Source: Thermoanaerobacter wiegelii Rt8.B1 (GTDB lineage: Bacteria; Bacillota; Thermoanaerobacteria; Thermoanaerobacterales; Thermoanaerobacteraceae). Taken from it: 64,000 bases of DNA. Within the stretch, counting starts at the first letter, position 1. Each line of letters opens with the position of its first letter. Made by a program: the position numbers and the translations under genes. The stretch lies in contig NC_015958.1 in the NCBI RefSeq assembly GCF_000147695.2, forward strand, positions 1,728,001-1,792,000, read 5' to 3'. Below the pieces are notes generated by a model that did no database searches, was not told where the DNA came from, and saw only the letters and a list, made by a program, of their open reading frames with translations. Below, piece after piece: positions 19,363-41,430 of this stretch.

Positions 19363-21093
19363 TTATAATTGCATAGATTCGTATTTCTTTAATTTTCTTA
19401 TTATTGTAGATTGATCTACTCCTAATACTTCCGCTGCTTTATAACTGCTTCCACATTCTTCTATAGCTTGTTTTATAAGTTGGTACTCCACAAGAGCACT
19501 AGCTTCTTTTAATGGCATTAATCTAGAAACATAAACTCCAGGCAAATGATTCGATTCTTCTTGATTAAGCAATTCACCGGGTAAATCTTTTTTCGTTATT
19601 TGATCATTTTCAGAAATTATCACAATTCTCTCTATAACATTTTCTAATTCACGAACATTACCTGGCCATGGATATTTCATAAATACTTCCATCACTTCAT
19701 TAGTTAGCTGTTTTGAACGTCCATATTTTTCATTATATATGTTAAGAAAATGATAAGCTAAAACAGGTATATCTTGAGTCCTTTCTCTTAACGGAGGTAT
19801 AGTAATAGGAACTACATTCAATCTATAATATAAGTCTTGTCTAAGTTTCCCTTCTTTGACTAATTCTTTTAAGTCCTTATTTGAAGCTGCAATTATTCGC
19901 ACATCAACTTTAATAGATTTTATACCCCCTACTCGAATAAATTCTTTTTCTTGTAAAACTCTCAATAATTTTACTTGCAGCGATAAAGGCAGTTCACTAA
20001 TCTCATCCAATAATAAAGTTCCCTTATCAGCAATTTCAATAAGTCCTGGTTTGCCTTCGCTTTTTGCACCTGTGAATGCACCTTTTTCATAACCAAATAA
20101 TTCTGCTTCTAAAAGATTCTCAGGTATCGCTCCGCAGTTTATCTTTATAAACGGTCCATTACTTCTACTGATATTGTGAATATATCTCGATAAAACTTCT
20201 TTTCCTACTCCTGTTTCACCATAAATAAGAATAGTAGATTCTGTAGGTGCAACTTTGTTTACTAGTTCTATCAATTTTTCCATTTGCTTGCTTCTATAAA
20301 TAAGCTCAGAATTCTTAAGGTGTGCAATTCTAAGTGAAGATAATTCCTCTTCATATTTTTGAAGTAACTCTTTTGTTTGTTGTAACTCAACTTTTAGTTT
20401 TTCTTCGTCTGTAATGTCTTTTGAAATACTTACAATTCTCCTAATGTTATTATCTTTATCAAAAAATGGTGTAGCTGTTACCAATAATTTTCGGCCAGTC
20501 TTTGTTTTTTGAATCACAGTAACTTTCTTTTTTTCTTCAATAGCAATTTTCGTAGCCGAGGGAAAGTACATACCATTTTTTTCTAAGTCGCTCACATTTT
20601 TACCAATGAGATCTTCCGGCTTTAATCCATATATTTTTTCAGCAGAAGAGCTAATTCTCACTTTTAAACCCGATCCGTCTGTAATACAAGCTAGATCGTC
20701 TGAACAGGCCATAAAAGCATCGAGGTCTGTTTTGACAAGGTCAAATTCTTTCTTAACAGATTTTAAATTATTTAATAAGAAAGATATTATTTCTCTAGAG
20801 GTAACAATACCTTTTATTTCATTGTAATTACCAGTCACTAAAAAAACCTCTCCATTATAAGTTTCTAAATCAATGCTTTCATTTTCATTAATTGTCAAAA
20901 ACGACATTATCGACAGTTTTTCCACTATCTCACTATTTTCCGATATTGGAATTATTTTTATCGGCAAATGAACATTATTTAATGTAATTATATAATTGTG
21001 TTCTTCGAAATTAACTCTCATATTTTTATTTAATTCTCTTTCTTCAATCAGTATTATTTTTTTGTTAATAAATCGTGTAATCTTTTCTTTCAT
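19363..21093 (-). CDS. Sigma-54-dependent transcriptional activator with PAS domain
   Basis: 576 aa from ATG 21093. An N-terminal region with a CBS-like look (residues about 50-115) is followed by a PAS domain (about 130-240), a short coiled coil, and an AAA+ domain with GETGVGKE (Walker A), ELFGYEKGAFTGA (the sigma-54-contacting GAFTGA loop), GTLLLDEISEL (Walker B) and RLNVVPITIPPLRER. A Fis-type helix-turn-helix (SSYKAAEVLGVDQSTIIRKL) closes the protein. It activates sigma-54 polymerase from upstream enhancers, here probably the three -24/-12 promoters in this region. The PAS or CBS part presumably senses the inducer; its identity is unknown. Confidence 0.93.
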   Translation of the reverse strand: MKEKITRFINKKIILIEERELNKNMRVNFEEHNYIITLNNVHLPIKIIPISENSEIVEKLSIMSFLTINENESIDLETYNGEVFLVTGNYNEIKGIVTSREIISFLLNNLKSVKKEFDLVKTDLDAFMACSDDLACITDGSGLKVRISSSAEKIYGLKPEDLIGKNVSDLEKNGMYFPSATKIAIEEKKKVTVIQKTKTGRKLLVTATPFFDKDNNIRRIVSISKDITDEEKLKVELQQTKELLQKYEEELSSLRIAHLKNSELIYRSKQMEKLIELVNKVAPTESTILIYGETGVGKEVLSRYIHNISRSNGPFIKINCGAIPENLLEAELFGYEKGAFTGAKSEGKPGLIEIADKGTLLLDEISELPLSLQVKLLRVLQEKEFIRVGGIKSIKVDVRIIAASNKDLKELVKEGKLRQDLYYRLNVVPITIPPLRERTQDIPVLAYHFLNIYNEKYGRSKQLTNEVMEVFMKYPWPGNVRELENVIERIVIISENDQITKKDLPGELLNQEESNHLPGVYVSRLMPLKEASALVEYQLIKQAIEECGSSYKAAEVLGVDQSTIIRKLKKYESMQL

Positions 21094-21679
21094 ACACAAT
21101 CACACCTTTTGTACTTAAATATATTTTAGTTTGTAAAACAATAAAGGTATTCTTATTTTTATATTGATAACACTTATACTTATAATAAATATTTTTCGCT
21201 TCTTGATTTTATGTCTTAACTTTTTAAGTATTTATCACTTATAACCTATTATAAAGTAAGAGTTTTTTATTATCCTATTACATTTATTTTTTCTTAACAG
21301 AGAAACTCTTAAAAACGAATAAAGAAAGTAATATTATAATTAATTAGGAAGAATATTCACAAATTATGTAATGTAATGGAACCCCTCTTATCGTTAGTGA
21401 AGTATTATCTTTCAGAAGAGTGTCAAATAGTTCTTAGGAAAGTTACAGTAACAGCACCGAACATTCCATACCTAAATCTTTGTAGAAGAAATTGCAGATG
21501 CACACTTGAGACAGTAAGGATGTAGAGCAAGTTTTTCTATAGTAAATCAAAATATCGTAAAACGGTTTCAAAATCAATACTTGCTTACAAATAATTGGCT
21601 TTCAATATAAAACAAATATATTTTGCTTTTATCCTTTTTATTAAGCGTATTCATTTTTTATTATATACCAATAATAAAA

Positions 21680-21910
21680 AAATTAAAAGCCCTTCCGGAA
21701 GGACTTTTAATTTTTATCCTTTTTATCCCACGAAGCCGTAAGGCTATGTTTTCATACCCGCTCTCGCAGGTGGGTACCCTGTCATCAGCTTCTGAAGTCC
21801 TGTCTTAGCAGGCATTTCTTCCACTGATGAACCCGGATTCCCGAAAAAGGTGCGTTGGTTGAAAACAAATTAGCCTAATACAAACTTCACAGGATTCATT
21901 TGGTTTTTCG
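21680..21910 (-). ncRNA. Candidate structured non-coding RNA with terminator
   Basis: Within the 931-bp gap 21094-22024, minus-strand sequence from about 21900 to 21720 is much more GC-rich than its surroundings and folds by eye into nested hairpins: TCATCAG/CTGATGA enclosing GAAG/CTTC and CCTG/CAGG; CCTGC-GAGA-GCGGG with a GNRA loop; TATG-AAAA-CATA; AGCC-TTAC-GGCT; with CCCAC/GTGGG closing the last three. It ends in an intrinsic terminator (21685-21708 then T-rich). A TATAAT at 21917-21922 fits a start near 21910. No gene follows closely, so it is more like a free RNA (6S-like or unknown) than a riboswitch. The rest of the gap shows nothing I can support. Confidence 0.5.
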
Positions 21911-22024
21911 TTTACAATTATAGTTTACGACAAATCTTACTAAATTGCAAGTGTAAAATATAGAAAATACAAGCTTTATACAAAAAAATAAAGAATGATA
22001 TAATATTGAGTGGAGGGAATTTCT

Positions 22025-22921
22025 ATGGAACCAGCAATAAAATGCAATATATGTCCAAGAAACTGCAATGTAGACAGGTCAAAATCAAAAGGACTTTGTA
22101 ACATGCCTTGGCAGGTAAAAGTATCAAAAGCCTATTTGCATCATTGGGAAGAGCCTTTTATAAGTGGAACAAGAGGCTCTGGAACAGTTTTTTTCAGTGG
22201 TTGTAACCTAAAGTGTGTCTTTTGTCAAAATTACGAAATAAGTCAATATCAATTTGGAAAGTTTATATCTGTTGATGAATTAGCTCAAATTTTCTTAAAC
22301 TTGCAAAAGCAAGGAGCTCACAACATAAACCTTGTTACTCCTACAATCCATGTCTTTGCCATAAAGGAGGCGATTTTATTAGCAAAAAGTCAAGGACTTC
22401 AAATACCTATAGTATATAATACAAACGCCTATGAAAATTTAGAAACTTTAAAAACGTTGGAAGGACTAATTGACATATATCTTCCTGACCTTAAGTATTA
22501 CGATGATACTCTTGCAAAAAAATATTCCAAAGCTCCTAATTATTTTGAACACGCAACAAAAGCCATATTAGAAATGTATAGGCAGGTTGGAATACCTCAA
22601 TTTGACGAAGAAGGAATATTAAAAAGAGGTTTAGTGATAAGACATCTCATAATGCCGGGATTTGTAGAGGACACTAAAAAAATTCTTTTGTGGATTAAAG
22701 AAAACCTCCCAAAAGAAATATATGTAAGCTTAATGAGTCAATATACCCCTTATTATCAAGCTCAAAAGTATCCAGAAATAAATAGAAAAATCACTCCTCA
22801 AGAATATGATGAAGCTATAGATTTTTTCTTTGAGATAGGCCTTGAAAATGGCTTAATTCAAGAAATAGAAAGCGCCAGTGAAGATTTCATCCCTGATTTT
22901 GATTTAGAAGGATTAGAATAA
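22025..22921 (+). CDS. Radical SAM protein, pyruvate formate-lyase activase-like
   Basis: 298 aa. ATG 22025 is chosen because GGAGGG lies seven bases upstream; the in-frame GTG 22010 precedes that site. An N-terminal cysteine pair region (CNICPRNCNVDR) precedes the radical SAM cluster motif in FFSGCNLKCVFCQNYEIS (CxxxCxxC). It resembles the PflA-like/YfkA-type family common in Clostridia, whose substrates are mostly undefined. It converges on the pseudouridine synthase gene with a nine-base overlap of the 3' ends and stands alone on its strand. Confidence 0.85.
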   Translation: MEPAIKCNICPRNCNVDRSKSKGLCNMPWQVKVSKAYLHHWEEPFISGTRGSGTVFFSGCNLKCVFCQNYEISQYQFGKFISVDELAQIFLNLQKQGAHNINLVTPTIHVFAIKEAILLAKSQGLQIPIVYNTNAYENLETLKTLEGLIDIYLPDLKYYDDTLAKKYSKAPNYFEHATKAILEMYRQVGIPQFDEEGILKRGLVIRHLIMPGFVEDTKKILLWIKENLPKEIYVSLMSQYTPYYQAQKYPEINRKITPQEYDEAIDFFFEIGLENGLIQEIESASEDFIPDFDLEGLE

Positions 22922-37876: not shown

Positions 37877-40300
37877 TTAAATACCACAAGTTTTACATAA
37901 AAGAGCATTTTTTAAGAAAAACTTATCAGCAATTTTAACTGCATCTTGAGCCGTTTTTCCGTAATAATCTGCTCCAATCTTATAGGCATATTCCTCAGTC
38001 AAAACAGCCCCGCCTACCATTATTTTCACATCAGTATTTGCTTTAAGCAGTTTGATAATTTTCTCCATATTAAACAAAGTTGTCGTCATCAAAGCACTTA
38101 GACCTACTAACGGTGCCCCTGTTCGCTTTACTTCCTCTAATATCACTTCTCCTTTTACATCTTTTCCTAAGTCAATTACATCATATCCATAGTTTTCAAG
38201 CAAAACTTTTACTATATTTTTTCCTATATCATGTACATCTCCTTCAACTGTAGCAAGTATTATTTTGCCTTTAGATACTGAACCTTTTGGAAGCTTTTCT
38301 TTTATTATCTTAAAAGCGCTTTGCACCACTTCTGCAGAGCTCAAAAGTTGTGGCAAGAAATATATGCCTTTTTCATATCTATCTCCCACTTCTTTTAAGG
38401 CAGGAATTATTATGTTATCAACTATAGAAAGAGGCTGAACTTCCTCCTCTAAAATATTTTTTACTATATCTTCTACTCCTGACTTTTTGCCTTCTAAAAT
38501 CTGGATATAGAGTTTTGATTTTAAATCTTCTTCTTGAATTTTTTGTTGTTCTTTCTCTTTGATCTCCTCTTTTTGCTTTTTCCCATATATATTCAGATAA
38601 TTCACACTGCCTTTATCTTTATTTAGTAAAACCATTGAAGCCCTCAAAGTGTCCATCATGGCTTCATCGCAGGGATTTATAATAGCAGTAGTAAGCCCAT
38701 AAGATGCTGCCATTGCTAAAAAAGTAGAGTTTATCAACCTTCTTTCAGGTAAACCAAAGGAAACATTGCTAAGTCCCACAACAGTATTTACTCCTAACTC
38801 TTCTTTAGCCAATTTTATCGCTTCTAAAGTCTCAATTGCAGCCTCCTGCTCAGAAGAAACCGTCAGCACAATACAATCTATCAATATGTCCTCTTTAGGT
38901 ATGCCATACTCTTCCGCTTTTTTTATAATTTTTTTCGCATTTTCAATTCTTTCATGCCTATCTTTGGGAAGCCCTTTATCTCCTACAGTAAGTCCTACAA
39001 CACAAGCTCCGTATTTTTTGACAATAGGAAGCACTTCTTTTAAACTTTCCTCTTTTGCACTTACAGAGTTGATTATGGGTCTACCTCTTAAAATTCTTAT
39101 AGCTTTTTCTACAGCTTTAATATTAGTGCTATCTATTTGAAGAGGAATGTCTACCACATTTTGTATTTCAGAAACTACTTTAGGAAGTAATTCTTCTTCG
39201 TTTACCCCAGGAACTCCCACATTTACATCCAATATTTCCGCTCCGCATTTTTGCTGTTTTATAGCTTCCTCTACTGCTAAACTTACATCTCCCGCCAAAA
39301 AAGCCTCACTTAACTTCTTTTTTCCAGTAGGATTTATACATTCCCCTATAACCCTTAAAAGATAATTTTCACCTATGAAAACTGTTTTTGTATTGGAAGC
39401 TACAGCTGTAAATTTGTTGACTTTGACTTTTGGCTTTAAATCTTTTACAGCTTTTTTAACAAGTTTTATATAGTGAGGAGTAGTACCGCAGCACCCTCCC
39501 ACTATAGAAGCGCCTTTTTCAACAAGTAAAGGAAAGAAACTGGCAAACTCTTCTGGTTTTAAGTCGTAAACTGTTTTTCCATCCCTAATCACAGGCATAC
39601 CTGCATTAGGCTGCGCAATAATAGGTATGCGAGCAACCTGTGAAATTTTTTCAACTACACTTACCATTTTATCGGGACCTGTCGAGCAGTTAACGCCAAT
39701 GGCATCTAATCCTAACCCTTGTAAACTAACTACTACAGTTATAGGGTCTGACCCCATAAGAGTCCTTCCATCTTCTTGAAAAGTCATTGTACATATAACT
39801 TTCATGTTTGAATTCTCTTTAGCAGCAAGAATGGCAGCTTTTGCCTCCAGCATATCTGACATTGTTTCAATTAAAACAATATCTGCTCCCGCTCTTTCTG
39901 CAGCTATAACTACTTCTTTAAAAACATCATAAGCTTCGTCAAAAGTCATGTCTCCATAAGGAGTTAAAAGCTCTCCAGTAGGTCCTATAGAAAGTGCCAC
40001 AGGTTTATCTCTTGCCGCTCTTTTTGCGATTTTGACAGCTTGAGTGACGATATTGAAAACTTCATTTTCCAGTCCATACTTTGCTAATTTTATCCTGTTA
40101 GCGCCAAAGGTATTTGTTTCAATTACATCCGCTCCTGCTTCTATATAGGACCTGTGGATATCAAATACTACTTCTGGATGGGTTATATTCATATATTCGG
40201 GACACTCTCCAGTTTTTAAACCCCTCTCTTGAAGTTGTGTCCCCATTGCTCCATCAAAAACAATCACTCTATTTGAAAGTTCTTTAAAAATGTCTAACAT
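37877..40300 (-). CDS. metH: Cobalamin-dependent methionine synthase (short form without activation domain)
   Basis: 807 aa. Domains in order: homocysteine-binding barrel (FDGAMGTQLQERGL; zinc ligands in VGGCCGTTP), pterin-binding barrel (GECINPTGKKKLSEAFLAGD), B12 cap and B12-binding domain (EGDVHDIGKNIVKVLL, the DxHxxG ligand). The C-terminal SAM-dependent reactivation domain of the E. coli enzyme is absent, as is usual in Clostridia and Thermotogae. It methylates homocysteine with methyl-tetrahydrofolate. It is 13 bp after metF, under the SAM-I riboswitch. Confidence 0.95.
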   Translation of the reverse strand: MLDIFKELSNRVIVFDGAMGTQLQERGLKTGECPEYMNITHPEVVFDIHRSYIEAGADVIETNTFGANRIKLAKYGLENEVFNIVTQAVKIAKRAARDKPVALSIGPTGELLTPYGDMTFDEAYDVFKEVVIAAERAGADIVLIETMSDMLEAKAAILAAKENSNMKVICTMTFQEDGRTLMGSDPITVVVSLQGLGLDAIGVNCSTGPDKMVSVVEKISQVARIPIIAQPNAGMPVIRDGKTVYDLKPEEFASFFPLLVEKGASIVGGCCGTTPHYIKLVKKAVKDLKPKVKVNKFTAVASNTKTVFIGENYLLRVIGECINPTGKKKLSEAFLAGDVSLAVEEAIKQQKCGAEILDVNVGVPGVNEEELLPKVVSEIQNVVDIPLQIDSTNIKAVEKAIRILRGRPIINSVSAKEESLKEVLPIVKKYGACVVGLTVGDKGLPKDRHERIENAKKIIKKAEEYGIPKEDILIDCIVLTVSSEQEAAIETLEAIKLAKEELGVNTVVGLSNVSFGLPERRLINSTFLAMAASYGLTTAIINPCDEAMMDTLRASMVLLNKDKGSVNYLNIYGKKQKEEIKEKEQQKIQEEDLKSKLYIQILEGKKSGVEDIVKNILEEEVQPLSIVDNIIIPALKEVGDRYEKGIYFLPQLLSSAEVVQSAFKIIKEKLPKGSVSKGKIILATVEGDVHDIGKNIVKVLLENYGYDVIDLGKDVKGEVILEEVKRTGAPLVGLSALMTTTLFNMEKIIKLLKANTDVKIMVGGAVLTEEYAYKIGADYYGKTAQDAVKIADKFFLKNALLCKTCGI

Positions 40301-40313
40301 TTTTAACCTCCAT

Positions 40314-41225
40314 TTAATTCATCTGTACGTTATTTTCTGCAAAATCACAGACTAAATCATCGACTCTTGAAATTATTTCTAACACAACATTTGTACTCCC
40401 TAAAGGCATAATGTGAATTCCTGCAACTTCACTGCGTATCCGCTTTATAAACTCTACAGCTATGTTTATTCCCTCTTCTCTTCCTCCATCCTTTAGCCTT
40501 TCTAAAACTTTTTCTGGAATATCTATACCTGGCACTTTTTCATTTAAATTGACTGCCATTTTATAGCTTTTAAGAGGTAATATGCCTATCAAAAGTGGTA
40601 CATTGAAATTTTTAATCTTTTCAATAAACTTAAATAAAATTTCCTCATCATAAACCGGTTGTGTTTGAATAAATTCTGCCCCTGCCTCTATCTTAACTTT
40701 AAGCTTCTCTAGTGCTTCATCCCTTAAATCATTTGGATTTGCAGTCGTACCGGCGCAAAATTCTGTTGGGGAATCTAATTTATTTCCATTGTAATCATAA
40801 CCTCTATTAAAAGCACTGATAATCTTTAAAAGCCCAACAGAATCTACATCATATACCCCTTTAGCCTGAGGAGTATCTCCACGGGAAGGGTCATCTCCTG
40901 TCAAGGCTAGTATGTTTCTCACACCTAACGCATAAGCTCCTAAGAGCTCTGACTGAAGGCCTATCAGATTTCTGTCTCTACAGGTCAAATGAAAAATAGC
41001 TTCAATGTTTAAGTGGTCTTGTAAAAGGTGAGCGACTGCTATAGGACTCATCCGCATATTCGCCATAGGACAGTCCGTTATATTTAAGGCATCTACAATG
41101 CCTTTTAATTTTCTCGCTTCTTCAATAGTTTTCGTTATATCTACCCCTTTTGGCGTAGAAATTTCTGCTGTCACAACAAACTTCCTTTTCTTAAGTTTAG
41201 TACACAAATTTTCATTTTTCAACAT
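40314..41225 (-). CDS. metF: Methylenetetrahydrofolate reductase
   Basis: 303 aa. VVTAEISTPKGVDITKTIEE, NITDCPMANMRMSPIAVAHL, HLTCRDRNLIGLQSELLGAY, ALTGDDPSRGD and GAEFIQTQPVYDEE are MetF signatures. It reduces methylene-THF to methyl-THF, feeding MetH encoded directly downstream. ATG 41225 follows GGAGGCGATG. The transcript leader is a SAM-I riboswitch, so expression should fall when S-adenosylmethionine is plentiful. Confidence 0.95.
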   Translation of the reverse strand: MLKNENLCTKLKKRKFVVTAEISTPKGVDITKTIEEARKLKGIVDALNITDCPMANMRMSPIAVAHLLQDHLNIEAIFHLTCRDRNLIGLQSELLGAYALGVRNILALTGDDPSRGDTPQAKGVYDVDSVGLLKIISAFNRGYDYNGNKLDSPTEFCAGTTANPNDLRDEALEKLKVKIEAGAEFIQTQPVYDEEILFKFIEKIKNFNVPLLIGILPLKSYKMAVNLNEKVPGIDIPEKVLERLKDGGREEGINIAVEFIKRIRSEVAGIHIMPLGSTNVVLEIISRVDDLVCDFAENNVQMN

Positions 41226-41250: not shown

Positions 41251-41391
41251 AAAAAAGTCTCTTCGCCAAAAGAAGAGACACCAAAACTCTCTCATCTTTC
41301 AGCGAAACGCTGCTGGAATTGGCACCAAGACGCATATAAAATGCCGGTTGCCGGGTTTCATCGGGCCAGTCCCTCCACCACTCTCGATAAG
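41251..41391 (-). promoter_or_regulatory. SAM-I (S-box) riboswitch with terminator controlling metF-metH
   Basis: The minus strand from 41391 begins CTTATCGAGAGTGGTGGAGG and continues with the conserved GACTGGCCCGATGAAACCCG, CAACC, GGTGCCAATTCC and GAAAGATGAGAG segments of the S-box. An intrinsic terminator follows at 41251-41279 (GTCTCTTC...GAAGAGAC plus T-run). SAM binding stabilises the terminator and stops transcription before metF. It accounts for much of the 41226-41624 gap. Confidence 0.97.
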
Positions 41392-41430
41392 AGATTTTAA
41401 AGTATTAACTTATTAAACTATTTAAGCTAT

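What the first reader, a model, noticed from the sequence alone, without database searches (positions are those of the whole stretch)
21680..21910. GC-rich structured RNA candidate in a long intergenic region
Several compact hairpins, including a GNRA-capped stem, and a strong terminator occur in a 230-nt minus-strand block with a TATAAT upstream and no close downstream gene. I could not match it to a standard riboswitch, tmRNA, SRP RNA or RNase P.
Basis: partly seen in the sequence, partly recalled or inferred. Interest (0 to 1): 0.58.

Follow-up and report, generated by a model that had tools for sequence, protein, structure and literature searches.

The report
Second 6S RNA of a Thermoanaerobacter
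The hairpin-rich block is a 6S RNA gene, a well-known small RNA that mimics an open promoter and holds RNA polymerase in check; this genome carries two of them and this is the more diverged one, which is a solid but ordinary result.

Summary
The block is a 6S RNA gene (Rfam RF00013). The match covers the whole model at window 21721-21898, minus strand, at 95.3 bits against a gathering score of 46.4. The hairpins, the GNRA-type hairpin, the TATAAT box (21917-21922) and the terminator (21678-21715) are all real, and the fold beats all 200 shuffles (z -6.1). The genome has a second, better-scoring 6S copy between an aspS-like and a tcdA/yrvM-like ORF; the window copy is paralogue "B". 18 of 19 genomes of the family have both copies. 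Copy B keeps the 6S rod by compensatory changes: 12 of 47 pairs changed on both sides, 98.2% of cells paired against 32-49% in slid controls. The predicted pRNA start lies in a conserved part of the central bubble. Two 6S copies were already reported for Thermoanaerobacter tengcongensis, according to a passage of PMC8414754, so this is not new. Mildly interesting extras: A and B split deeply, carry different predicted pRNAs, and one sister lineage has only a B-like 6S. Transcription and function were not tested.

The parts
21721..21898 (-). 6S RNA (copy B), 178 nt body
   Evidence: RF00013, 95.3 bits, model 1-187 of 187, gathering 46.4
21883..21895 (-). closing stem, 5' strand (helix 1)
   Evidence: columns 4-16 of A1; 2 pairs with changes on both sides, 96.8% paired
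21725..21737 (-). closing stem, 3' strand (helix 1)
   Evidence: columns 164-176 of A1
21860..21867 (-). helix next to the central bubble, 5' strand (P2-like; helix 3)
   Evidence: 8 pairs invariant in 18 of 18 sequences; overlaps the predicted pRNA template
21747..21754 (-). helix next to the central bubble, 3' strand (helix 3)
21843..21859 (-). central bubble, 5' strand
   Evidence: unpaired between helices 3 and 4 in the structure counted
21854..21867 (-). predicted pRNA template (first templated base 21854; pRNA 5'-GUUGGUUGAAAACA)
   Evidence: inferred from the conserved CCAAC ending at nt 45; start site not measured
21755..21771 (-). central bubble, 3' strand, with the GAGA-loop hairpin at 21756-21771
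   Evidence: fold; hairpin loop sequence kept in 10 of 18 copy-B sequences, lost in 8
21772..21842 (-). apical (internal) stem-loop
   Evidence: helices 4-6; 8 pairs with changes on both sides
21678..21715 (-). intrinsic terminator
   Evidence: 17-pair stem, 4-nt loop, T tail
21917..21922 (-). -10 box TATAAT
   Evidence: 6 of 6; identical in 7 of 8 genus-g1 copies (G007 differs), weak -35

Best explanation
It is a 6S RNA gene (ssrS/bsr type), the second and more diverged of two paralogues in a Thermoanaerobacter genome. It is transcribed leftward from a promoter with a TATAAT box at 21917-21922 to the terminator at 21678. The RNA folds into a rod with an open central bubble that resembles an open promoter. 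By analogy with characterised 6S RNAs it binds the housekeeping RNA polymerase holoenzyme and blocks promoters; on nutrient return the polymerase copies a short product RNA from the bubble, starting at about nt 45 (21854), which refolds and releases the 6S RNA. Shown here: family membership, fold, covariation, orthologues, paralogy. Inferred: transcription, polymerase binding, pRNA synthesis, growth-phase role, and any division of labour with copy A.
For: RF00013 end to end, 95.3 bits. Same family in 39 of 41 relatives, and in the 2 missed ones with laxer filters (59.4 and 51.8 bits). Two copies in 18 of 19 genomes of the family (G000-G018) and in a further genome of the same species (G041). 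Covariation in 18 copy-B sequences: 98.2% of 846 cells paired, 12 of 47 pairs changed on both sides (3 of 500 shuffles reach this), covariation score reached by 0 of 500; slid controls 32-49% paired. Bubble motif CCAAC ending at nt 44-46 in 39 of 39 sequences. Divergent radical-SAM neighbour shared by 7 of 7 same-genus loci, plus G010 and G014, of 17 loci compared.
Against: No transcript or binding data. The -35 box is poor in this genus, so the promoter is not certain. The predicted pRNA start rests on alignment, not measurement. One same-genus genome (G006, 90% complete) has only copy A. The radical-SAM neighbour is not found at 8 of the 17 copy-B loci.
Confidence: 0.97

Rival explanations
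1. A decaying duplicate of 6S RNA that keeps the shape but no longer works.
For: Lower Rfam score than copy A (95.3 against 115.6 bits); weak -35; absent from G006.
Against: Helix 3 next to the bubble is invariant in 18 of 18, bubble motif conserved, compensatory changes kept across genera, terminator present in this genome.
Confidence: 0.04
2. A 6S relative with a changed target, for example another sigma-factor form or the core polymerase, as Ms1 RNA does in actinobacteria (abstract of PMC9130861 in the listing).
For: Distinct predicted pRNA (9-mer GUUGGUUGA in 17 of 18 B copies against GUUGGCUCA in 19 of 19 A copies) and a different promoter.
Against: Rod, bubble and family score are those of ordinary 6S RNA; no positive evidence for another target.
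Confidence: 0.07
3. A chance cluster of hairpins with a terminator, or a cis-acting leader.
For: The terminator alone gives strong folding; sub-threshold leader hits such as Phe_leader (25 bits against 55) overlap it.
Against: End-to-end RF00013 match, z -6.1, covariation, no minus-strand ORF within 580 nt downstream.
Confidence: 0.005

Closest known systems
6S RNA / SsrS (Rfam RF00013)
   Same: Length, rod shape, central bubble, apical stem, full-length model match
   Different: Nothing found outside the family's range
6S copy A of the same genome (G000:C1:1209603-1209785, between aspS-like and tcdA/yrvM-like ORFs)
   Same: Same family and CCAAC start motif
   Different: About 60% identical on average between A and B sets (range 55-65%); different predicted pRNA; promoter with a better -35 in this genus
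B. subtilis 6S-1 and 6S-2 RNAs
   Same: Two paralogues in one genome; the 3'-bubble hairpin described for 6S-1 (passages of PMC8876501) resembles the GAGA hairpin here
   Different: Orthology with either was not tested: no B. subtilis sequence was available to my calls
Second 6S copy reported for Thermoanaerobacter tengcongensis
   Same: Two copies stated in PMC8414754 (passage seen, citing its reference 15; the paper I took this to be was not held); a Caldanaerobacter subterraneus contig in my set carries copy B
   Different: Could not compare sequences with the original report; that T. tengcongensis is now placed in Caldanaerobacter subterraneus is recalled

Membership tests
6S RNA (RF00013) | Covariance-model score at or above the gathering score | tested here: met
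   95.3 against 46.4 bits, model 1-187 of 187
6S RNA (RF00013) | Rod of closing stem, central bubble and apical stem, conserved by compensatory change | tested here: met
   98.2% of cells paired, 12 of 47 pairs changed on both sides, slid controls 32-49%
6S RNA (RF00013) | pRNA start site in the 5' strand of the bubble | tested here: inconclusive
   Conserved CCAAC ending at nt 44-46 in all 39 sequences; GG at pRNA positions 4/5 as PMC8414754 describes; start not measured
6S RNA (RF00013) | Own promoter and terminator | tested here: inconclusive
   Terminator met; TATAAT present but -35 weak
6S RNA (RF00013) | Binds housekeeping RNA polymerase holoenzyme and templates pRNA | not testable with these tools
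   Needs biochemistry
B. subtilis 6S-2 orthologue | Groups with 6S-2 in a tree | not tested
   No B. subtilis sequence was fetched

The most novel reading that the evidence does not exclude
The A and B copies are an ancient pair of 6S types in clostridial bacteria, kept side by side because their different pRNAs give two release thresholds for RNA polymerase, with some lineages (the two f3 genomes) having dropped the A type and living on a B-like 6S alone.
Probability: 0.25. Interest if true: 0.4.

Novelty: already known. Interest (0 to 1): 0.13.

Why it matters
It removes a candidate 'unknown RNA' by identifying it firmly. The small gain is a clean set of 18 orthologous second-copy 6S RNAs from one family, with fixed but different predicted pRNAs in the two paralogues, which would let one test why some bacteria keep two 6S RNAs.

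Tried and rejected
Plasmid records gave no DNA match to the 341-base locus. Sub-threshold Rfam hits at or near the terminator (Phe_leader, BTnc231, MIR319, rnk_pseudo, SSRC34_2, SurC) are all far below their gathering scores and were rejected. The idea that G020 and G022 lack 6S RNA was wrong: stricter filters had lost them. The idea that the 21100-21660 intergenic block holds another gene found no support: no ORF of 50 aa or more besides 21623-21808 overlaps 21330-21660, no Rfam hit over gathering there, and a long match only in the same-species genome locus L136, 91% over 579 nt. The sign that the B type is deep is not clean: model R1 scores do not follow the tree for G042 and G162, whose A-side copies score 90 and 85 bits with the B model, and 2 of 10 two-copy genomes (G038, G085) have both fetched copies on the B side.

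Full report
What was checked. All are in the sequence. The fold is far better than chance: -80.4 kcal/mol against a shuffled mean of -55.6, z -6.1, 0 of 200 shuffles as good. Part of that is the terminator stem, but the 178-nt body alone folds at -63.8.

What it is. A scan of the whole 64-kb window against all Rfam families at gathering thresholds gave two matches, one of them RF00013, 6S RNA, at 21721-21898 minus, 95.3 bits against 46.4, covering the model from first to last position (alignment). In the whole genome there are two such matches: copy A at G000:C1:1209603-1209785, 115.6 bits, and the window copy B. Copy A lies between an ORF that reads as aspartyl-tRNA synthetase and one that reads as TcdA/YrvM (those names are recalled from the sequences, not from a search). 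Copy B lies between a PAS/sigma-54-activator regulator (19363-21099, minus) and a divergent radical-SAM protein (22010-22921, plus; Pfam).

Host. The nearest named contigs to the radical-SAM neighbour are Thermoanaerobacter sp. A7A (96% identity) and T. thermocopriae (93%), so the window is from a Thermoanaerobacter or very close to it. Contig lengths tie G002 to A7A, G008 to T. thermocopriae and G003 to Caldanaerobacter subterraneus DSM 13054.

Conservation. RF00013 matched 39 of 41 genomes searched as relatives; the two misses, G020 and G022, do have a 6S RNA (59.4 and 51.8 bits). In the window's own family 18 of 19 genomes have two copies; G006, 90% complete, shows one. A tree of 39 sequences (19 A, 18 B, 2 from the order) separates A and B with 100/100 support, with A-B identity averaging 60%. 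On the 18 copy-B sequences a 47-pair rod is paired in 98.2% of 846 cells, with 12 pairs changed on both sides; slid versions are paired in 32-49%. The eight pairs beside the bubble never vary, which says nothing about pairing but fits their double use as pRNA template. PMC8876501 (passages seen) describes a small 3'-bubble hairpin in B. subtilis 6S-1.

How it works. From the family (PMC8876501 passages): 6S RNA occupies the housekeeping polymerase and is released when the polymerase copies a pRNA from it. The conserved CCAAC places the predicted start at nt 45 of copy B, window 21854. The predicted 9-mers are GUUGGUUGA in 17 of 18 B copies (GUUGGGUGA in G003) and GUUGGCUCA in 19 of 19 A copies; predicted 14-mer hybrid energies average -18.6 for B and -21.0 for A. 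These are 37 C nearest-neighbour values and only relative for a thermophile. GG at pRNA positions 4/5 agrees with the feature that PMC8414754 calls conserved. That B may be released later or with longer pRNAs than A is inference.

Promoters. Copy A in this genus has TTGAAA-17-TATTAT in 9 of 9 genomes; copy B has TATAAT in 7 of 8 with weak -35 partners, while 9 of the 10 copy-B loci outside the genus have TTGCAA-17-TATACT and the tenth TTGAAA-17-TATACT. So the two copies, and copy B between genera, are probably driven differently.

Known or new. PMC8414754 (passages seen) states that two 6S copies were reported for several Firmicutes including Thermoanaerobacter tengcongensis; the paper I took to be its source was not held. 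A search for 6S RNA with Thermoanaerobacter returned 4 papers (listing). The finding is thus an ordinary member of a known family, in a lineage where a second copy was already stated to exist.

What is left over. Among 149 genomes drawn from the phylum, 17 have two or more matches. In a 47-row tree, 8 of 10 two-copy genomes outside the family put one copy on the A side and one on the B side of a 99/94-supported split, 2 of 10 (G038, G085) put both on the B side, and the f3 genomes' single 6S joins the B family with 98/84. This hints at an old duplication with loss of A in f3, but the RNAs are short, the less typical copies have longer branches and could attract each other, the root is only a midpoint, and the R1 scores of G042 and G162 disagree with it.

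Noticed in passing
window 41289-41393, minus: SAM (S-box) riboswitch, 93.6 bits, upstream of a MetF-like ORF (40314-41225) and an ORF that reads as a fused homocysteine/pterin methyltransferase (37877-40300); ordinary methionine regulation. Gene names recalled from the translations.
   Followed up: partly
window 21100-21660: AT-rich intergenic block between the 6S terminator and the sigma-54-type regulator; long similarity only in the same-species locus L136 (91% over 579 nt), not in other same-genus loci held. No function found.
   Followed up: partly
L149 1501-1677 (minus) and L150 1501-1677 (plus): Single 6S RNAs of two f3 genomes that stricter Rfam filters missed; they group with copy B in the tree, so this lineage may live on a B-like 6S alone.
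   Followed up: partly
G038 and G085 (L167, L168, L175, L176): Two-copy genomes whose fetched 6S copies both fall on the B side of the tree.
   Followed up: no
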